A stretch of DNA of 64,000 bases from the NCBI RefSeq assembly GCF_900100305.1, contig NZ_FNEY01000005.1:124001-188000 (forward strand). The letters are read 5' to 3'. Both the position numbers and the translations under genes were made by a program. This stretch comes from Paracidovorax citrulli (GTDB lineage: Bacteria; Pseudomonadota; Gammaproteobacteria; Burkholderiales; Burkholderiaceae_C). Below, piece by piece: positions 1,779 to 49,950 of this stretch; positions within the stretch are counted from its first letter, which is position 1; each line of letters starts with the position of its first letter. The notes below the pieces were generated by a model. The model saw only the letters and a program-made list of their open reading frames with translations, searched no databases and was not told the origin of the DNA.

Positions 1779-3773
1779 TCAGTTGGCCTGGGCCAGCTGA
1801 TCCAGGATCGCCGGATTCTCAAGCGTGCTGGTGTCCTGCGTGATCGCCTCCCCCTTGGCGATGGAGCGCAGCAGGCGGCGCATGATCTTGCCGCTGCGGG
1901 TCTTGGGCAGGTTGTCGCCGAAGCGGATGTCCTTCGGCTTGGCGATCGGGCCGATCTCCCTGGCCACCCAGTCGCGCAGTTCCTTGGCGATCGCTTTGGC
2001 CTCGTCGCCGGTGGGGCGCGGTCGCTTCAAGACGACGAAGGCGCAGATGGCCTCGCCGGTCAGGTCGTCGGGGCGGCCCACCACGGCGGCCTCGGCCACG
2101 AGGTCGGTCTTGGCGACCAGGGCCGATTCGATCTCCATCGTGCCCATGCGGTGGCCCGAGACGTTCAGCACGTCGTCGATGCGGCCGGTGATGCGGAAGT
2201 AGCCACGGTCGGCCGAGCGCACCGCGCCGTCGCCCGCCAGGTAGTAGCCCTTGAGCTCTTCGGGGAAGTAGCTCTTCTTGAAGCGCTCCGGATCGTTCCA
2301 GATGGTGCGGATCATGCTGGGCCAGGGGCGCTTGATGACCAGGATCCCGCCCGTGCCGTTGGGGATGTCGTTGCCGGATTCATCGACGATGGCGGCGGTG
2401 ATGCCGGGCAGCGGCAGCGTGCAGGAGCCCGGCACCAGCGGCGTGGCACCCGGCAGCGGGGTGATGACATGGCCGCCGGTTTCGGTCTGCCAGAAGGTGT
2501 CCACGATGGGGCAGCGCTCGCCGCCCACGTTCCGGTGGTACCACATCCAGGCCTCCGGATTGATGGGTTCGCCCACGCTGCCCAGGATGCGCAGGCTCGA
2601 GAGGTCCCAGTTCTTCGGATGCACCTTCTCGTCCGAATCGGCCGCCTTGATGAGGGAGCGGATGGCCGTGGGCGCGGTGTAGAAGATCGAGACCTTGTGG
2701 CGCTCGATCATCTGCCAGAAGCGGCCGGCGTCCGGGTAGGTGGGCACGCCCTCGAACACGACCTGCGTGGCGCCGGCGGCGAGCGGGCCGTACGCCACGT
2801 AGGTGTGGCCGGTGATCCAGCCGATGTCGGCCGTGCACCAGAACACGTCCTCGGGCTTGAGGTCGAAAGTCCAGTCCATCGTGAGCCTGGCCCACAGCAG
2901 GTAGCCGCCGGTGGAATGCTGCACGCCCTTGGGCTTGCCGGTCGAACCGCTGGTGTAGAGGATGAAGAGCGGGTGCTCCGCGCCCACGGGCACGGGGGCG
3001 CACTCGGCCCCCTGGCCGGCCAGCGCTTCATCGAAGGTCTTGTCGCGGCCCGCCACCATGTTGCAGGCCGTGGGCGTGCGCTGGAAGACGAGGATGCTGC
3101 GGATCGACTCGCAGCCGCCCATGGCGATGCCTTCGTCCACGATGGCCTTCAGCGGCAACTCCTTGCCGCCGCGCATCTGGTAGTTGGCGGTGATCACGGC
3201 CACCGCGCCCGCGTCGATGATGCGCTCCTGCAGCGCCTTGGCCGAGAAGCCGCCGAACACCACGCTGTGGGTGGCGCCGATGCGCGCGCAGGCCTGCATG
3301 GCCACCACGCCCTCGATGGTCATGGGCATGTAGATCAGCACGCGGTCGCCCTTCTTCACGCCCTCGGCCTGGAGGGCGTTGGCGAAGCGGCCCACGCGCT
3401 CCAGCAGTTCCCTGTAGGTGACCTTCGTCACGGCCCCGTCGTCGGCCTCGAAGACGATCGCGGTCTTGTTCTCGACCGGCGTGCCGATGTGGCGGTCCAG
3501 GCAGTTGGCGCTGGCGTTCAGCTCGCCGTCGGCGAACCACTGGAAGAACGGGGCGTTGGACTCGTCGAGCGTGCGGGTGAAGGGCCTGGTCCACTGCACG
3601 TTCTCGCGCGCCAGGCGCGCCCAGAAGCCCTCGAAATCACGCTCGGCCTCGGAGCACAGGGCCTCGTAGCCGGCCATGCCGGACACGCGGGCGGCTTGCT
3701 CGCAGGCGGCGGGCGGGGGGAACACGCGGTTTTCCACCAGCACGGATTCGATCGTGGACGATGACGCACTCAT
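1779..3773 (-). CDS. acs: Acetyl-CoA synthetase (AMP-forming)
   Basis: Makes acetyl-CoA from acetate, ATP and CoA through an acetyl-adenylate, in the cytoplasm; this allows growth on acetate and scavenging of overflow acetate. The protein has 664 residues, the usual length for Acs. Visible motifs: the phosphate-binding loop [12 protein letters not shown] near residue 275, [25 protein letters not shown] around 425-435, and near the C-terminus [10 protein letters not shown], whose second lysine (about residue 629) is the one acetylated by Pat-type enzymes in other bacteria. The start at 3773 has an AGGAGA ribosome site on the minus strand; a longer in-frame start lies upstream but adds a basic, unconserved stretch. 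It diverges from the UPF0114 gene across about 265 bp. Confidence 0.96.
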
Positions 3774-24720: not shown

Positions 24721-27498
24721 TCAGGCCTCTTCGTACTCGATGGCGAAATCGCTGTCCGCCACGCCGAGGCGGATGCGGCGGATCGACTTCGAATCGACAG
24801 AGCTCTGCAGGAAGCGCATCGCCAGCCGCGGCAGCAGGTTCTGGGTGATGATTCCGTCCACCATCCGGGCGCCGGATTCCACCTCGGTGCAGCGCTGGCG
24901 AATGAGCTGCACGGCCGCATCGTCGATGTCCAGCACGGCGCCGTGGCGCTCGGCGATGCGCGTCTGGATGCGCTGCAGCTGCAGGCGGATGATCTGCTCG
25001 AGCATCGCGTCCGAGATCGGGTAGTACGGCACCACCACCAGCCGGCCCAGCAGCGCGGCCGGGAATTTCTCCAGCAGCGGCTTGCGCACCGCCTGGGCCA
25101 GTGCCTCGGGCTGGGGCGCCAGCTCCGGATCCCGGCACATGCCGGCGATCAGCTCCGAGCCCACGTTGGAAGTCAGGATGATGACCGTGTTCTTGAAATC
25201 GATGTAGCGCCCCTCGCCGTCTTCCATCCAGCCCTTGTCGAACACCTGGAAGAACAGCTCGTGCACGTCCGGGTGGGCCTTCTCGATCTCGTCGAGCAGC
25301 ACCACGCTGTAGGGGCGGCGGCGCACGGCCTCGGTCAGCACGCCGCCTTCGCCGTAGCCCACGTAGCCGGGCGGCGCGCCCTTGAGCGTGGAGACCGTGT
25401 GGGCCTCCTGGTATTCGCTCATGTTGATGGTGATGAGGTTCTGCTCGCCACCGTACAGCGCCTCGGCCAGCGACAGCGCGGTCTCCGTCTTGCCGACGCC
25501 CGAGGGCCCGGCCAGCAGGAACACGCCGATGGGCTTGCCGGGGTTGTCCAGCTGGGCACGCGCGGTCTGGATGCGGCGCGTGATCGCCTCCAGGCCGTGG
25601 CGCTGGCCGATCACCCGCTTCTCCAGCGTATCGGCGAGCGTCAGCACGGACTGCACCTCGTCGCGCACCATGCGGCCCACGGGGATGCCCGTCCATTCGG
25701 CCACCACCGCAGCCACCACGCTCGCATCCACGACGGGCTGCAGCAGCGGATCTTCGCCCTGCAGGCGCGCCAGGTCCTGGCGCAGCGCAGCCAGCGCCTC
25801 GGGAGTGGCGACGCCCGGGGACACCGCCGCGCCCTGTGCCGTACCGGCGGCAGCCGCCCCGCCGCTGCCGGCTTCTCCGGAGGCCTCCGATGCATGGGCC
25901 GGCGCGGTTGCCGGGGCAGGCGCCTGCGCCGCCCCGGCTGCCCCGGGCTTGCCGGCCGGCTTCAGCAACGCCGCCTCCGCGTCCACGATCTGCTGCACCA
26001 GCACCTTCTCGCGTTCGAACCGCTCCTGCAATTCGGCCTTTTCGGCCAGCAGGCGCTCGATCGCGGTGCCGATGTCGGCGAAGCGGCCGGCGTCGCCCAC
26101 GCCCAGGCCCAGCTCGCGCTGCACGATGTCCTTCTCGACCTCGAGCGCCTCCAGCTGACGCACCACCGACTCCAGCCGCGCCGGCGTCGCGTGCAGGCCC
26201 AGCGCCACGCGCGAGCACGCGGTGTCCAGCAGGCTCACGGCCTTGTCGGGCAGCTGGCGCGACGGGATGTAGCGGTGCGACAGCGTCACCGCCGCAGCCA
26301 CGGCGTCCTCGCCGATACGCACCTTGTGATGGCCTTCCAGCTTCGCGGCCACGCCGCGCAGCATGTGCACCGCCTTGGCCTCGTCCGGCTCGTGGATCTG
26401 CACGAGCTGGAAGCGCCGGGTGAGCGCCGGGTCCTTCTCGATGTATTTCTTGTACTCGGCCCAGGTGGTGGCGCCGATGGTGCGCAGCACGCCGCGCGCC
26501 AGCGCCGGCTTGAGCAGGTTGGCGGCATCGCCCGTGCCTGCCTGCCCGCCCGCGCCGACGAGCGTGTGCACCTCGTCGATGAACAGCACGATCGGCACCG
26601 TGCTGGCCTGCACCTCGTCGAGCAGCGAGCGCAGGCGGTTCTCGAACTCGCCCTTCATGCTCGCGCCGGCCTGCAGCAGGCCGATGTCCACCACGCGCAG
26701 TTGCACGTCCTTGAGCGGTGGCGGCACGTCGCCCGCCGCGATGCGCAGCGCGAGGCCTTCCACCACCGCCGTCTTGCCCACGCCGGCCTCGCCGACCAGG
26801 ATGGGGTTGTTCTGACGCCGGCGCATGAGGATGTCCACCATCTGGCGCACTTCCTCGTCGCGGCCGGTGACCGGGTCGAGTTCCTGCAGGCGCGCGCGCT
26901 CCGTCAGGTCCACCGTGTAACGCTTCAGGGCCTCGCCGGGCCCGGCCGCCTCGGCAGTGGCGCCGCTCGCCTCGCCGGGCACGCCGCCCAGGCCGCTGCC
27001 GTCCGCGGCCTTCAGGCGCGATTCCGGCGAATCCGGCAGCACGCGGCCGAACACCTCGCTCAGGGCAGGCTCGCCCAGCTTGTTGAATTCCCCCGAAATC
27101 GCGCGCAGCTCGTTGGCCAGCACGCGCGTGCGCAGCATGCCCGAGAGCCAGTAGGCGCTGCGGATCTGCGATTCGCCGTACATCAGCGTGGCGTACACCC
27201 AGCCGCGTTCGATCGAGGATTCGATCTGCGCCGAGAAATCGCTGATCGACGTGGCGCCGCGCGGCAGCCGGTCCAGGCTCTGCAGCACGTCGGTGGCGAG
27301 CCGGTCGGAATCCACCGCGAAGTGGCGCAGCAGCCGGATCAGGTCGGAATCCGTCTCCTGCAGCAGCTGGTGCAGCCAGTGCACCAGCTCCACGTAGGGA
27401 TTGCCGCGCAGCTTGCAGAACACGGTCGCGCTTTCCAGCGACTTGAAGAGCAGGGGATTGAGCTTGCCGAAAAGGGCTTGCCGGCTGATTTCAGACAT
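24721..27498 (-). CDS. tssH: T6SS ATPase ClpV (TssH)
   Basis: Hexameric AAA+ unfoldase that disassembles the contracted TssB-TssC sheath so that its parts are reused. The protein has 925 residues. The N-domain (about 1-150) binds the TssC helix in other systems. The first AAA domain has Walker A GEAGVGKT near 235 and Walker B VLFIDEVH near 302; the second has GPSGVGKT near 660 and VLLDEIEKAHPDV near 735. The middle region carries an Ala/Gly/Pro-rich insert (about 515-560, AGKPGAAGAAQAPAPA) that is longer than in most homologues. It is the last gene of the operon, followed by a terminator. Confidence 0.95.
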   Translation of the reverse strand: MSEISRQALFGKLNPLLFKSLESATVFCKLRGNPYVELVHWLHQLLQETDSDLIRLLRHFAVDSDRLATDVLQSLDRLPRGATSISDFSAQIESSIERGWVYATLMYGESQIRSAYWLSGMLRTRVLANELRAISGEFNKLGEPALSEVFGRVLPDSPESRLKAADGSGLGGVPGEASGATAEAAGPGEALKRYTVDLTERARLQELDPVTGRDEEVRQMVDILMRRRQNNPILVGEAGVGKTAVVEGLALRIAAGDVPPPLKDVQLRVVDIGLLQAGASMKGEFENRLRSLLDEVQASTVPIVLFIDEVHTLVGAGGQAGTGDAANLLKPALARGVLRTIGATTWAEYKKYIEKDPALTRRFQLVQIHEPDEAKAVHMLRGVAAKLEGHHKVRIGEDAVAAAVTLSHRYIPSRQLPDKAVSLLDTACSRVALGLHATPARLESVVRQLEALEVEKDIVQRELGLGVGDAGRFADIGTAIERLLAEKAELQERFEREKVLVQQIVDAEAALLKPAGKPGAAGAAQAPAPATAPAHASEASGEAGSGGAAAAGTAQGAAVSPGVATPEALAALRQDLARLQGEDPLLQPVVDASVVAAVVAEWTGIPVGRMVRDEVQSVLTLADTLEKRVIGQRHGLEAITRRIQTARAQLDNPGKPIGVFLLAGPSGVGKTETALSLAEALYGGEQNLITINMSEYQEAHTVSTLKGAPPGYVGYGEGGVLTEAVRRRPYSVVLLDEIEKAHPDVHELFFQVFDKGWMEDGEGRYIDFKNTVIILTSNVGSELIAGMCRDPELAPQPEALAQAVRKPLLEKFPAALLGRLVVVPYYPISDAMLEQIIRLQLQRIQTRIAERHGAVLDIDDAAVQLIRQRCTEVESGARMVDGIITQNLLPRLAMRFLQSSVDSKSIRRIRLGVADSDFAIEYEEA

Positions 27499-30680: not shown

Positions 30681-31202
30681 TCACCGCTGCTCGGACACGG
30701 ACACCTGCCCGGTCTCCAGGTCGAGGCTGGTCTTGAGCAGCAGCTCCAGCGGATAGGGCGACGACCAGAACTGGCACCGGATTTCGAACTGCAGGGTGTT
30801 GTGGTGGTTGAACAGCTTGCTGGAAGGCGCCAGCGTCACGCTCAGGGTATGGGGCAGGATGCGGGGCTCGTGCTGGAGGATCGCCTTCAGGATGGCCGCT
30901 TCCACGTCCTTCCAGTCCAGCTCCGACAGCAGCTGGCCAGCCAGCGGCTTCATGCCGAAGTTCAGCACGGAGCGCTCGGCGTGGGGCAGGCCCTCGAAAT
31001 CGATGTGCGACGACGCGTCCGACGCATTCAGCAGCCAGTTGAGATCGCGCAGCAGTGCCTGCCGCAGGCGCGGCTCGGTCACATAGACCGATTCGGCCCG
31101 CTCCGTGCGGCGGGAGGGCTCGTGGTCGGTCAGCCGGTCCAGCAGCGCCGGCTGCAGCCGGTCCTTGCCGTTGCCGTATTTCTCCCTGCTCTGCGTCGCC
31201 AT
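30681..31202 (-). CDS. tssE: T6SS baseplate protein TssE (gp25-like)
   Basis: Small baseplate protein related to phage T4 gp25 that starts sheath assembly. The protein has 173 residues. The N-terminal segment has PALLDRLTDHEP, and the gp25 core follows with LRDLNWLLNASD, SVLNFGMKPLAGQ and the ILQHEPRILPHTLSV block, where the Glu-Pro-Arg motif of gp25-like proteins (EPRI) is kept. It ends 16 bp before the region of tagJ on the same strand, consistent with one message. Confidence 0.94.
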   Translation of the reverse strand: MATQSREKYGNGKDRLQPALLDRLTDHEPSRRTERAESVYVTEPRLRQALLRDLNWLLNASDASSHIDFEGLPHAERSVLNFGMKPLAGQLLSELDWKDVEAAILKAILQHEPRILPHTLSVTLAPSSKLFNHHNTLQFEIRCQFWSSPYPLELLLKTSLDLETGQVSVSEQR

Positions 31203-31218: not shown

Positions 31219-32007
31219 TCAGGCGGACAGCTTCACCCGCCGCACGTCGAGCAGCGCGGCATCGCCCTGGTCCGTGGCCCACACGCGCTGGCCCCAGCCC
31301 GTCGCCTGGTCGTCCCCCAGGTCGCGCCATTCGGTGGCGCGTGCCAGCCGGATCTCGTCGCGCTCGGCGGTTTCGGAGCCCGGATAGCGCGTGGGGATGA
31401 ACCCATGCATCACGCCGCCGTTGTGCAGCGTGAGCTCGCAGGCCGACCAGACGAGATCGCGCAGGTCCTGCGGCTTCTCGAAGGCGATCTGCGACACGCT
31501 GGAAAACGGCACCCAGTAATAGCTGCCGTTGGCGTACAGCTCGCAGACCGGGCCCAGGCGCGCGTCGGAGTCGGCGATCCACTCGAACGCCTCGCCGTCG
31601 ATCTCACCAGCCGAGGCCGGCGCCTGCTCGAACGCGGCGGCGCGCAGTTCCGCGGCCTGACCGGCACGCCCCTCGGCCAGGCACTGCAGGCCTTCCACCA
31701 TCCATCCGAGCCATTCCGGGGGCTCGCCGACGATGTTGGGCGTGCGCTTGCCCGCGAACACGTCACGGCGCGCGACCTCGCACAGGATCACCTCCCGGTA
31801 GGCACGTGCCATGGCTTCCGCCTTGCGGTCCAGCTGGGCACAGATCTGCAGCTGGTCCAGCGCCTTCTGCCACTCCCCGTACACCGCCAGGACCTGGAAA
31901 TAGAACACCCGCAGCGGCGCATCCTGCGGCTTGGCCCGGATCGCGTCCTTGAGCTCGGCCAGCTGGCGGTCCAGCGGGCGCTTGAAATCGAAATTCATGG
32001 ATTGCAT
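31219..32007 (-). CDS. tagJ: T6SS accessory protein TagJ (ImpE)
   Basis: A protein of 262 residues, ImpE/TagJ family: an N-terminal tetratricopeptide-like part (RPLDRQLAELKDAIRAKPQDAPLRVFYFQVL) and a C-terminal part with WIADSDARLGPVCELYANGSYYWVPF, GFIPTRYPGSE and GWGQRVWATDQGDAALLDVR. In Pseudomonas TagJ binds TssB and may help present the sheath to ClpV. Two ATGs (32007 and 31998) are possible; neither has a strong ribosome site, and the upstream one is used here. The 121-bp gap before it holds two strong hairpins, listed separately. Confidence 0.9.
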   Translation of the reverse strand: MQSMNFDFKRPLDRQLAELKDAIRAKPQDAPLRVFYFQVLAVYGEWQKALDQLQICAQLDRKAEAMARAYREVILCEVARRDVFAGKRTPNIVGEPPEWLGWMVEGLQCLAEGRAGQAAELRAAAFEQAPASAGEIDGEAFEWIADSDARLGPVCELYANGSYYWVPFSSVSQIAFEKPQDLRDLVWSACELTLHNGGVMHGFIPTRYPGSETAERDEIRLARATEWRDLGDDQATGWGQRVWATDQGDAALLDVRRVKLSA

Positions 32008-32052
32008 GCGGTGGTCCGCAAAAATAGTTATGGGTTCTCCGCTGGGGGAACC

Positions 32053-32117
32053 GGCGGCAGGGGCGCGCCCCGCCACGCCGCCCTGCCGCCAACGGGCGCG
32101 GCAGCAGGCTGCCGCGC
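32053..32117 (-). repeat. Two adjacent perfect 10-bp inverted repeats between tssC and tagJ
   Basis: GCGCGGCAGC at 32096-32105 pairs with GCTGCCGCGC at 32108-32117, and GGCGGCAGGG at 32053-32062 pairs with CCCTGCCGCC at 32081-32090. Both are perfect. They lie 12 to 76 bp after the tssC stop on the minus strand, and neither is followed by a T-tract. They could act as mRNA-end or processing structures that set the tssB-tssC message apart from the downstream genes. Confidence 0.6.
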
Positions 32118-32128
32118 GCCCCGAAGGG

Positions 32129-33628
32129 TCAGTTGCCCGCCTGCTTCACCGACGGCAGCTTCGACACCAGCCGCAGGGACACGGTCAGGCCTTCGAGCTG
32201 GTAGTGCGGGCGCAGGAAGAACTTGGACGTGTAGTAGCCCGGGTTGCCTTCCACTTCGGCCACCTGCACCTCGGCCGCGGCCAGCGGCTTGCGGGCCTTG
32301 GTTTCCTGCGAGGAGTTGGCCGGGTCGCCGTCCACGTAGTTCATGATCCAGTCGTTGAGCCAGCGCTCCATGTCGGAGCGCTCCTTGAACGAGCCGATCT
32401 TGTCGCGCACGATGCACTTGAGGTAGTGCGCGAAGCGGCAGCACGCGAACATGTAGGGCAGGCGCGCCGACAGGTTGGCGTTCGCCGTGGCGTCCGGATC
32501 GTAGTATTCGGCCGGCTTGTGCAGGGACTGCGCGCCGATGAAGGCGGCGACGTCGGAGTTCTTGCGGTGCACCAGCGGCATGAAGCCGTTCTTGGCCAAT
32601 TCGGCCTCGCGCCGGTCGCTGATGGCGATCTCGGTCGGGCACTTCATGTCCACGCCGCCGTCGTCCGTCGGGAAGGTGTGCGCCGGCAGGTTGTCCACCG
32701 CGCCGCCGGACTCCACCCCGCGGATCGAGGTGCACCAGCCGTAGTACTTGAACGAGCGGTTGATGTTCACGGCCATCGCATAGGCGGAGTTCGCCCAGGC
32801 GTACTTGCTGTGGTCGCCGCCGGCCGTTTCCTCCTCGAAGTCGAACTCGTCCACCGGATTCGTCTTCGCGCCGTAAGGCAGGCGCGCGAGGAAGCGCGGC
32901 ATCGCCAGGCCGATGTACTTCGAGTCGTCGGAATCGCGCAGGCTGCGCCACGCGGCATATTCGGTGTTGGTGAAGATCTTGGTCAGGTCGCGGGGGTTGG
33001 CCAGCTCCTGCCAGGAGTCCATCTGCATCATCGCGGGAGACGCGCCGGCGATGAACGGGCAGTGGGCGGCGGCGGACACCTTGGCCATCTCGCCGAGCAG
33101 TTCCACGTCCGGCGGGCTGTGGTCGAAATAGTAGTCGCCCACCAGGCACCCGAACGGCTCCCCGCCGAACTGGCCGTATTCCTCTTCGTACACCTTCTTG
33201 AAGATCGGGCTCTGGTCCCAGCCCACGCCCTTGAAGCGGCGCATGTTCCGGTGCAGCTCCTTCTTGGAGATGTTCATCACGCGGATCTTGAGCAGCTCGT
33301 CCACCTCGGTGTTGTGGACCAGGTGGTGCAAGCCGCGCCATGCGCCCTCGAGCTGCTGGAAATCGCTGTGGTGGATGATCAGGTTGATCTGCTCGGAGAG
33401 CTTGCGGTCGATCTCGGCGATGATGGCCTGGACGGTCTGGTATGCATCGTCCGACAGCGTGGCCGAGGCCGCCAGCGCCTGCTGCGCGAGCGTCTGCACG
33501 GCCGATTCGACCGCCTCGCGCGCCTGGTCGGTCTTGGGCTTGAATTCCTTCTGCAGCAGCGAGGTGAATTCGCTGCCCTCGAGCGTCTGGGTGCCCTGCA
33601 CCGCGTCCAGAGAAGTCGTCGTGTTCAT
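32129..33628 (-). CDS. tssC: T6SS contractile sheath large subunit TssC
   Basis: Forms the contractile sheath with TssB around the Hcp tube. The protein has 499 residues, the usual length. Recognisable are DSDFQQ-type sequence HHSDFQQLEGAWRGLHHLV near 85-103, IFKKVYEEEYGQFGGEPFG near 145-163, SPAMMQMDSWQELANPRDL, and the C-terminal FFLRPHYQLEGLTVSLRLVS. The GDYYFDH and PYGAKTNPVDEFDFEE segments are also typical. A clear AAGGGA ribosome site precedes the start. It is 13 bp after tssB. Confidence 0.97.
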   Translation of the reverse strand: MNTTTSLDAVQGTQTLEGSEFTSLLQKEFKPKTDQAREAVESAVQTLAQQALAASATLSDDAYQTVQAIIAEIDRKLSEQINLIIHHSDFQQLEGAWRGLHHLVHNTEVDELLKIRVMNISKKELHRNMRRFKGVGWDQSPIFKKVYEEEYGQFGGEPFGCLVGDYYFDHSPPDVELLGEMAKVSAAAHCPFIAGASPAMMQMDSWQELANPRDLTKIFTNTEYAAWRSLRDSDDSKYIGLAMPRFLARLPYGAKTNPVDEFDFEEETAGGDHSKYAWANSAYAMAVNINRSFKYYGWCTSIRGVESGGAVDNLPAHTFPTDDGGVDMKCPTEIAISDRREAELAKNGFMPLVHRKNSDVAAFIGAQSLHKPAEYYDPDATANANLSARLPYMFACCRFAHYLKCIVRDKIGSFKERSDMERWLNDWIMNYVDGDPANSSQETKARKPLAAAEVQVAEVEGNPGYYTSKFFLRPHYQLEGLTVSLRLVSKLPSVKQAGN

Positions 33629-35439: not shown

Positions 35440-36153
35440 TTATGCATTCGGGCCTCCGCCGAAAAGACGCAGGAACAGGCTTTCATTGGGAACGCCCCAG
35501 TGCTCGCAGCTGCGGCCGCCGGCCCCGGGCGGGTAGGACCACCAGAAGCTGGCGGCCTGTCCCGCGCGCAGGATGTCCCGCCCACGGGAGAACATCGCCT
35601 CGCCCTGCCCGGCGGTCCCGCCCATGCCGAGATCGGAGAGGATGCCCGCCATGTCGCCGCCCTGCCCCCTGCCGTCCGGCGCCGTGGCGGCGAAGGGCCA
35701 TGGCAGCCTGGACAGGCGGGTGTCGAGCGCGTCCGCCGGCAGGGCCAGCCTGCGCGCCTCGATGACCGCATCGCAGGCCTCCGAGAAGAACTGCCCGAGC
35801 ACGCCATCGGCGGCCAGCGACTGCCGGCCGCCCTCGCCCACCGCCATCACGGTGAGCGGATAGCAGCGCCCCACGCGGTCGATGCTGGGGGCGAGCACGC
35901 CGCACGACGGAGCGGCGCCCTTGCCGCCGCTGGCCACGAAGGACCACAGCGGCGCCTGCGTGAACGTGCGCTCCCAGTCGCCATGCGCGGTGGACCGCAG
36001 GTGCCCCAGGCCGTGGCTCAGCCATTCGTCCCAGGCGCCGCTCATGGCCCGGGGCATGCGCCGGCCCACGAAGTCTCCCTGGCCGGGCAGCTTCCCGAAC
36101 CAGGCCACGCGCGGCTGCGCGCGGGACCACGGCATCAGAGATTGCCAGGACAC
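35440..36153 (-). CDS. tagF: T6SS-associated regulator TagF
   Basis: A protein of 237 residues of the TagF/ImpM family, opening with WFGKLPGQGDFVGRRMP, the family signature, and DEWLSHGL. In Pseudomonas TagF is a repressor of the secretion system that works on FHA protein, independent of the kinase/phosphatase branch. The Gly/Asp-rich stretch near 165-190 is a variable loop. It begins inside the last codons of tssM (19-bp overlap at 36135-36153), so both are co-translated. Confidence 0.9.
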   Translation of the reverse strand: MSWQSLMPWSRAQPRVAWFGKLPGQGDFVGRRMPRAMSGAWDEWLSHGLGHLRSTAHGDWERTFTQAPLWSFVASGGKGAAPSCGVLAPSIDRVGRCYPLTVMAVGEGGRQSLAADGVLGQFFSEACDAVIEARRLALPADALDTRLSRLPWPFAATAPDGRGQGGDMAGILSDLGMGGTAGQGEAMFSRGRDILRAGQAASFWWSYPPGAGGRSCEHWGVPNESLFLRLFGGGPNA

Positions 36154-48850: not shown

Positions 48851-49418
48851 GAGTTCACGCTTCCAAGCACCGCTGCGGGCGGCGCGAACGTCGCCGGCCG
48901 CCGGGCAGGGCCCCGCCGCGAAATCCCGTCTCCTGCATGTCGAGCACCAAAGTCAAGGCATCACTCCCAGCCGGCTGTTTCTAGTCTGTATGGAGATGGC
49001 GGAAAAGTGTATCGCCCGCCGCCGTCTCGTTGACCCCGCCAGGCACCGGGAAAGCGGGGCTCTACGGGGGACCGGCAAGTGTAACGGGAACATGTGACAC
49101 GCCCCTGCCATCCCGGTCCCCGTCGAACAAAAAGACAAATTGTTTCTTTTGTTTCCTGAAACTAAACAATGTTGAAAATTGGAGTATTTTCAAACGAACC
49201 GCCCCTCCCTATCATCGGCGGCGCAACTAGGCACCCGAAGAAGCATGCCTGATCGCCTCGCGCAGCCCCTGGGAGGGGGGATGCTCCAGGCGAATATGGT
49301 CAGGGCTCTTTGGCGAAAGGCCCCGTTCGTGAGGAACAGGCCACCGCGATGCGAGCGGGTCGGTTCCATTTTTATCTTTCAAAGCGCGTACGCGCAGTCC
49401 ATCAAAAGGAAGCATTCC
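48851..49418. other. Divergent promoter region between the kinase operon and hcp
   Basis: 568 bp without a gene. The section nearest the kinase is GC-rich. At 49130-49200 the sequence becomes strikingly AT-rich, with the inverted repeats GTTTC-CT-GAAAC (49151-49162) and TTGAAAAT-N6-ATTTTCAA (49172-49193). Near hcp there is a perfect 12-bp palindrome GCGCGTACGCGC (49384-49395). I could not find a convincing sigma-54 site or a minus-strand promoter. Confidence 0.5.
49172..49215 (+). promoter_or_regulatory. Candidate hcp promoter with overlapping palindrome
   Basis: TTTTCA (49187-49192) and TATCAT (49210-49215) are 17 bp apart and point to hcp, leaving a leader of about 200 nt. The -35 box is part of the palindrome TTGAAAAT-N6-ATTTTCAA (49172-49193), so a regulator bound there would interfere with or help polymerase. 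The -35 match is only moderate. Confidence 0.4.
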
Positions 49419-49901
49419 ATGTCCGTCGATATGTTCATGAAGGTTGAAGGTGCCAGCGGCGAATCACAAGACGCCAACCACAAGAGCTGGACCGACATCC
49501 GCTCCTTCACCTGGGGCGCGACGCAACCCAACTCGATGGCCACGGGCAGCGGCGCCGGCGCCGGCAAGGTCACTTTCCACGACCTGAACGTCGTGGCCAA
49601 GATCGACAAGGCCTACCCGGCCGTGCTCAAGCACTGCTCCTCCGGCAAGCACCTGGGTCAGGTGGAGATCTCGATGTGCAAGGCCGGCGGCACGCAGATC
49701 GAATTCAGCAAGATCACGCTCACCGACGTGCTGGTCACGAGCGTCACCGTCAGCGGCACCGACGGCAGCGATGCCGTCCTGGTGAATTACGCATTCCAGG
49801 CCGCCAAAATCAAGACCCAATACTGGGAACAGACGAACCAGGGCGGCAAGGGTGCAGAAAGCTCGGCCGGCTGGAACATCAAGGAAAACAAAGAAGCCTG
49901 A
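49419..49901 (+). CDS. hcp: T6SS tube protein Hcp (TssD)
   Basis: Hexameric ring that stacks into the secreted inner tube and carries small effectors. The protein has 160 residues: VDMFMKVEGASGESQDANHKSW at the start, EIRSFTWG-like DIRSFTWGATQP, VTFHDLNVVAKIDKAYPAVLKHC, and VLVNYAFQAAKIKTQYWEQ, all typical of the Hcp1 class. AAAAGGAAG lies just before the ATG at 49419. It is transcribed opposite to the rest of the cluster and has its own terminator, as fits a protein needed in large amounts. The tube gene normally sits between tssC and tssE; here that place is taken by hairpins and tagJ. Confidence 0.96.
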   Translation: MSVDMFMKVEGASGESQDANHKSWTDIRSFTWGATQPNSMATGSGAGAGKVTFHDLNVVAKIDKAYPAVLKHCSSGKHLGQVEISMCKAGGTQIEFSKITLTDVLVTSVTVSGTDGSDAVLVNYAFQAAKIKTQYWEQTNQGGKGAESSAGWNIKENKEA

Positions 49902-49914
49902 TTCTTCGCTTCGC

Positions 49915-49950
49915 AAAAGCCGGAGCCTTCACAAAGGCTCCGGCTTTTTT
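49915..49950 (+). terminator. Strong intrinsic terminator after hcp
   Basis: AAAAGCCGGAGCC (49915-49927), loop TTCACAAA, GGCTCCGGCTTTTTT (49936-49950): a perfect stem followed by a T-run, 14 bp after the hcp stop. It would separate hcp from the effector remnant downstream, so the latter pair must have had its own promoter or relied on read-through. Confidence 0.9.

What the first reader, a model, noticed from the sequence alone, without database searches (positions are those of the whole stretch)
32008..32128. Twin perfect 10-bp hairpins between tssC and tagJ
Two consecutive perfect inverted repeats occupy the gap just after the sheath genes and neither carries a T-tract. Sheath subunits are needed in large excess over tagJ, tssE, tssF and tssG, so these may stabilise the upstream tssBC mRNA end or dampen downstream transcription. 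In other clusters hcp often occupies this place.
Basis: partly seen in the sequence, partly recalled or inferred. Interest (0 to 1): 0.5.

Follow-up and report, generated by a model that had tools for sequence, protein, structure and literature searches.

The report
mRNA hairpins after T6SS sheath genes
Two strong RNA hairpins really do sit between the sheath gene and the next gene of a bacterial harpoon (type VI secretion) operon, and they most likely shield the sheath mRNA from decay so that more sheath than baseplate is made, a trick already shown once in another bacterium.

Summary
The hairpins are real. On the transcribed (minus) strand the 121-nt tssC-tagJ gap holds HP1 (32117-32096) and HP2 (32090-32053), each a perfect 10-nt inverted repeat, plus a weak HP3, then an unpaired A/U patch before tagJ. 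No terminator or promoter call, no repeat family. Two such repeats arise in 1 of 5000 shuffles of this gap, but its folding energy is only modestly unusual (z -1.6; 76% G+C). The genome is a Paracidovorax. In 13 of 17 genomes of the genus tssC and tagJ flank an hcp-free gap. Close relatives keep about 90% of the pairs, without covariation beyond chance; distant ones have unrelated, often statistically strong hairpins at the same place. Where hcp lies between tssC and tagJ, the interval after hcp is more structured than the one before it in 25 of 30 genomes, repeated in 21 of 32 genomes outside the family. So a stem-loop tends to mark the end of the tube/sheath block, and follows tssC where hcp is gone. 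Best reading: a 3'-protective, decay-blocking stem-loop, as shown after hcp4 in Yersinia T6SS4 (PMC12503267). No RNA data were available; function is inferred. New member of a known kind.

The parts
32096..32117 (-). HP1: perfect 10-nt inverted repeat, 2 nt between the arms (as RNA 9 pairs, 4-nt loop); 11 nt after the tssC stop codon
32053..32090 (-). HP2: 10-bp stem with an inner 4-bp helix; -31.0 kcal/mol
32033..32052 (-). HP3: weak stem GGTTC..GAACC, -7.3 kcal/mol, directly after HP2
   Evidence: variable in relatives
32020..32032 (-). A/U patch, unpaired probability 0.93-0.99 at 32021-32032; candidate endonuclease (RNase E-like) cut site; similar in 9 close genomes
   Evidence: cleavage is inferred
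32008..32020 (-). HP4: small stem GCGG-ACCA-CCGC just before tagJ, invariant in the 8 aligned genomes
32129..33628 (-). tssC (sheath), upstream gene presumed protected
   Evidence: PF05943, PF18945
33642..34190 (-). tssB (sheath), 13 nt before tssC
   Evidence: PF05591
31219..32007 (-). tagJ (ImpE family), downstream gene; likely start at 31998
   Evidence: PF07024; starts compared
30681..31202 (-). tssE (baseplate)
   Evidence: PF04965
28734..30608 (-). tssF (baseplate)
   Evidence: PF05947
49416..49901 (+). hcp, the only T6SS_HCP match found in this genome, far from tssBC and on the other strand

Best explanation
The gap encodes a block of stem-loops at the 3' end of the tssBC part of a longer T6SS mRNA. 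Most likely an endonuclease cuts the mRNA in the unpaired A/U patch between the stem-loops and tagJ. The upstream piece then ends in HP1-HP2(-HP3), which stop 3'-to-5' exonucleases, so tssB-tssC mRNA outlives the tagJ-tssE-tssF-tssG mRNA and sheath protein is made in excess. Shown here: the stems, their place, the lack of a terminator or repeat family, and the recurrence of structure at this boundary in relatives. Inferred: one transcript across the gap, the cut, the exonuclease block and the effect on protein ratio.
For: Two strong stems and no terminator or promoter call between genes on one strand. More distant hcp-less relatives have hairpins of unrelated sequence in the first 60 nt after the tssC stop: G007, SUPP3334, valerianellae and G419 0 of 500 shuffles as low, G016 and G424 5 of 500. 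In the first 40 nt, which hold HP1 alone, the G000 group has 12-26 of 500, konjaci 0, anthurii 21. After-tssC z: 10 hcp-less lineages (my grouping) mean -2.26 against -0.79 in 62 hcp-bearing genomes, one-sided Mann-Whitney p 0.004. Where hcp intervenes, the structure is after hcp: 25 of 30, p 7e-6; 21 of 32 outside the family, p 0.006. TssC tree of 92 rows, midpoint root: the 17 hcp-less family rows are one clade, SH-aLRT 96, amid hcp-bearing rows. Precedent: in Yersinia T6SS4 mutating the GC-rich stem-loop after hcp4 lowered only hcp4 mRNA, and genes downstream of hcp4 are less abundant (PMC12503267, section 10 read). A stable stem-loop with an RNase E site after it raised the upstream reporter in E. 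coli (PMC10667835, passages).
Against: The gap's own z is modest and the antisense strand folds as well. No covariation beyond chance: with the stems in their right register 91.2% of 215 cells pair, but only 2 pairs show changes on both sides, reached by 100 of 500 shuffles. G002 has z +0.3 and 365 of 500 in the 40-nt test; G009 96 of 500. In the 60-nt test, whose end cuts HP2, the nine close genomes have 33-426 of 500, and G362 has 240 of 500. HP1's 3' arm can pair instead with HP2's 5' arm (-24.3 kcal/mol). The RNase E-like motif RNWUU is weak evidence: found in 12 of 13 gaps, but in 27-92% of letter-shuffled gaps too, and absent from anthurii. In 11 of 32 outside genomes the post-hcp interval is not the more structured one. 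G946 lacks hcp and has only a 13-nt gap. No RNA-seq was available.
Confidence: 0.5

Rival explanations
1. No function: a very G+C-rich spacer folds by itself, and two perfect stems are a local accident or the scar of a lost hcp gene.
For: Gap z only -1.6; 9 of 200 shuffled windows hold such a close pair; G002 z +0.3; no covariation beyond chance.
Against: 1 of 5000 gap shuffles has both stems; relatives with 60-64% G+C gaps have hairpins at the same place that shuffles rarely match; the boundary pattern repeats in 21 of 32 genomes outside the family.
Confidence: 0.25
2. Partial transcription terminator or attenuator without a U-tract, which lets only some polymerases pass into tagJ-tssEFG. In several relatives the post-hcp hairpin does have a T-run.
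For: Strong stems between a high-demand and a low-demand gene; post-hcp hairpins with T-runs in some relatives, e.g. G334, G326, G337.
Against: No T-run after HP1 or HP2 and no terminator call in the gap; in Yersinia, mutating the analogous stem left the other tested T6SS4 transcripts unchanged (PMC12503267).
Confidence: 0.15
3. The stems act on tagJ: they insulate or tune its translation start, which has no clear Shine-Dalgarno sequence, with the conserved A/U patch and HP4 as its initiation region.
For: The most conserved part of the gap is the last 25 nt or so before tagJ in the close genomes; no purine-rich SD is visible (by eye).
Against: HP1 follows tssC, not tagJ; in hcp-bearing genomes the structure tends to follow hcp, which also precedes tagJ, so this is only weak evidence against. 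The conserved patch is absent in the four distant genus members although they keep hairpins.
Confidence: 0.1

Closest known systems
3'-protective stem-loop downstream of hcp4, Yersinia pseudotuberculosis T6SS4 (PMC12503267; passages and section 10 read)
   Same: GC-rich stem-loop in a T6SS operon at the end of the tube/sheath block and before tssE; genes upstream more abundant than genes downstream.
   Different: There it follows hcp4; here hcp is elsewhere and two stems follow tssC directly. Function was tested there, not here.
Selective RNA processing and stabilisation in E. coli operons (PMC10667835, passages) and programmed differential decay of operons (PMC5927463, passages)
   Same: Stem-loop at the end of the gene wanted in excess, endonuclease site downstream, no terminator motif.
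   Different: Cleavage and decay were measured there; only sequence and folding evidence here.
Rhodobacter puf intercistronic hairpins (recalled; also cited in passages of PMC12503267)
   Same: Intercistronic hairpin that sets a high ratio of upstream to downstream mRNA.
   Different: Unrelated operon and sequence.
EHEC hcp3 3' UTR element h3R (PMC13141884, passages)
   Same: Hairpin just after a T6SS tube gene; the authors report an element there that stabilises hcp3 mRNA.
   Different: Read there also as a terminator plus promoter separating hcp3 from vgrG3.

Membership tests
Intercistronic 3'-protective (decay-blocking) stem-loop | Stable stem-loop between two co-directional genes, shortly after the stop codon of the upstream gene | tested here: met
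Intercistronic 3'-protective (decay-blocking) stem-loop | No intrinsic terminator (U-tract) | tested here: met
Intercistronic 3'-protective (decay-blocking) stem-loop | Structure recurs at that place in relatives | tested here: met
   as a tendency; exceptions G002, G362, G009
Intercistronic 3'-protective (decay-blocking) stem-loop | Compensatory changes in the stems | tested here: inconclusive
   2 of 27 pairs with both-side changes, reached by 100 of 500 shuffles; 8 sequences, little variation
Intercistronic 3'-protective (decay-blocking) stem-loop | Endonuclease cut downstream of the stem | tested here: inconclusive
   unpaired A/U patch and RNWUU match, but the motif is common by chance
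Intercistronic 3'-protective (decay-blocking) stem-loop | Upstream mRNA more abundant and longer-lived; 3' end at the stem | not testable with these tools
   no RNA data
Intrinsic terminator | GC stem followed at once by a U-run | tested here: not met
REP / dispersed palindromic repeat | Many copies of the same stem in the genome | tested here: not met
   HP1 pattern 60 places against 44 for the reversed control at up to 2 mismatches, one exact; HP2 pattern 5 places, one exact, four with 3 mismatches; whole gap once
Known Rfam RNA family | Match over the gathering score | tested here: not met
   only five tRNAs in the window

The most novel reading that the evidence does not exclude
Many T6SS operons of the TagJ-bearing kind carry a stem-loop that marks the border between the genes for the bulk polymer (TssB, TssC, Hcp) and the genes for the few-copy baseplate, and sets their ratio by mRNA decay. 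The element keeps to the border rather than to a gene or a sequence: where hcp has left the operon, as in the Paracidovorax clade, structure is found directly after tssC instead.
Probability: 0.3. Interest if true: 0.55.

Novelty: new member of a known kind. Interest (0 to 1): 0.33.

Why it matters
A T6SS needs many sheath and tube subunits but few baseplate subunits, often from one operon. If a decay-blocking stem-loop at the tube/sheath border is a general solution, the stoichiometry of this machine becomes directly testable by 3'-end mapping, and the Yersinia case is an example of a wider rule.

Tried and rejected
Dispersed repeat (REP-like) origin: rejected. Rfam family: none at the gathering score. 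Intrinsic terminator or sigma-70 promoter in the gap: none called. N-terminal extension of tagJ from the GTG at 32076: rejected, because relatives differ from G000 by 2 nt between HP2 and tagJ, which breaks the frame. hcp remnant: no hcp match in the genus loci. Covariation as proof: the RNAalifold consensus pairs HP1 in another register than its real stem, so I did not use its counts for HP1; recounted with the real stems the covariation is within chance. The 4-genome alignment A2 is poor and its structure was not used. G002 was left out of A1 because its gap is 206 nt.

At 80 nt the nine have 9-359 of 500.

Rows dropped. Family: of 60 places fetched (from the top of the list, G178 and G114 left out, the lower part not fetched), 18 lacked a tssC or tagJ match in the stretch; of the 42 left, 32 have hcp, 4 are hcp-less with gaps up to 1.1 kb, 6 are hcp-less by this query with gaps over 1600 nt; the 10 with gaps over 1600 nt were skipped. 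28 family plus 2 order genomes gave the 30 pairs. Outside the family: 58 places fetched (G640, G441 and G1055 left out), 18 lacked a match, 2 are hcp-less, 4 had no usable interval on one side, leaving 34 pairs, 32 of them new. Start codons in these loci were set by script, so interval ends may be off by some codons. Related genomes are not independent, so the p-values are optimistic. In the genus, 4 of 17 genomes had no TagJ match. Where hcp lies in the other 12 genus genomes was not examined.

Full report
Observation. The window lies in a Paracidovorax genome, judged from the nearest named loci by TagJ, P. oryzae (98%) and P. cattleyae (96%), whose contigs recur among the genomes of the same genus. 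The T6SS genes run on the minus strand: tssA, tssB, tssC, tagJ, tssE, tssF (Pfam); tssG and clpV are named from their reading frames, without a family search. The 121-nt tssC-tagJ gap (32008-32128) is the longest of the five gaps between tssB and clpV that I measured (13, 121, 16, 72 and 72 nt); the tssA-tssB gap, 162 nt, is longer, with z -0.9. Read as mRNA the gap holds HP1 (-22.5 kcal/mol), HP2 (-31.0), a weak HP3 (-7.3), an unpaired A/U patch and a small HP4 before tagJ. There is no terminator or promoter call, no Rfam match, no other copy in the genome.

Chance. Two perfect 10-bp stems occur in 1 of 5000 dinucleotide shuffles of the gap, but a close pair occurs somewhere in 9 of 200 shuffled windows. 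The folding energy is as low in 49 of 2130 window tiles and the z-score in 222 of 2130; the opposite strand of the gap has z -2.5. So the two stems are unlikely by chance at this spot, while the overall stability is largely a matter of G+C content.

Relatives in the genus. Thirteen of 17 genomes, ours included, have tssC, a gap of 121-206 nt without hcp match, and tagJ; the other four have no TagJ match. In the eight aligned in A1, 88.7% of HP1 cells and 90.2% of HP2 cells pair, but only one pair in each stem shows a change on both sides, which 100 of 500 shuffles reach for the whole structure: the stems are kept, covariation does not prove it. In the first 40 nt after the stop, HP1 of the five-genome G000 group is matched by 12-26 of 500 shuffles, anthurii 21, konjaci 0, G009 96, G002 365. 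In the more distant members the gap sequence is unrelated, yet a strong hairpin begins right after the tssC stop: G007, SUPP3334 and valerianellae 0 of 500 shuffles as stable in the first 60 nt, G016 5 of 500; in neighbouring genera G419 0 of 500 and G424 5 of 500, but G362 240 of 500. In that 60-nt test, whose end cuts through HP2, the nine close genomes have 33-426 of 500.

Where hcp went. Of 42 family loci with tssC and tagJ in reach, 32 have an hcp match between them. On a midpoint-rooted TssC tree of 92 rows the 17 hcp-less family rows form one clade (SH-aLRT 96) amid hcp-bearing rows; G946 and G840 are separate hcp-less cases. In this genome the only T6SS_HCP match is at 49416-49901 on the other strand, with a perfect 15-bp stem ending in TTTT just after it.

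Border rule. I compared the fold z of the tssC-hcp interval with that of the interval after the first hcp. In 30 genomes the second is lower in 25 (means -0.87 and -2.97, Wilcoxon p 7e-6). I then wrote down the prediction (note) and repeated it outside the family: 21 of 32 (means -0.71 and -2.16, p 0.006). Without hcp, the after-tssC interval is more structured than in hcp-bearing genomes: 10 lineages of my grouping mean -2.26 against 62 genomes mean -0.79, one-sided p 0.004. G840, a separate hcp-less case, has z -5.7 after tssC; G946 has only a 13-nt gap. The pattern is a tendency with exceptions, some post-hcp hairpins carry T-runs and may be terminators, and phylogenetic dependence was only partly removed.

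Mechanism. [quoted passage not shown] In E. coli reporters a stable stem-loop upstream of an RNase E site raises the upstream gene (PMC10667835, passages). The anatomy here fits: stems, then an unpaired A/U patch with an RNWUU match in G000, then tagJ. The motif match is weak evidence. I put 0.5 on decay protection.

Print status. Among the titles and abstract starts listed by the searches I saw no paper on stem-loops between tssC and tagJ. Only the listed part of each result was seen, and most subscription papers are not in that library.

Noticed in passing
35761-35881, minus strand: The lowest z of the 2130 window tiles (z -7.2 from 30 shuffles, -77.6 kcal/mol) lies inside the coding frame 35440-36153, whose product looks like TagF/ImpM (recalled from its start; no family search run): long complementary arms within a gene.
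   Followed up: partly
49915-49948: 15-bp perfect stem with A- and T-runs at its ends right after hcp, a terminator-like hairpin.
   Followed up: no
32053-32117: HP1's 3' arm (CTGCCGC) can pair with HP2's 5' arm (GCGGCAG), so an alternative fold of -24.3 kcal/mol competes; a switch was not tested.
   Followed up: partly
32008-32033: CCATAAC-A-TTTT-GCGGACCACCGC before tagJ is nearly the same in 9 Paracidovorax genomes, is found once in this genome at up to 3 mismatches, and shows no clear Shine-Dalgarno sequence.
   Followed up: partly
L062 (G257), about 2083-3188: A 1.1-kb stretch without hcp match between tssC and tagJ in a sister genus; what it encodes was not determined.
   Followed up: no
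27365-27389: Perfect 10-bp hairpin AGCTGGTGCAGCCAGTGCACCAGCT within the first part of the clpV frame.
   Followed up: no
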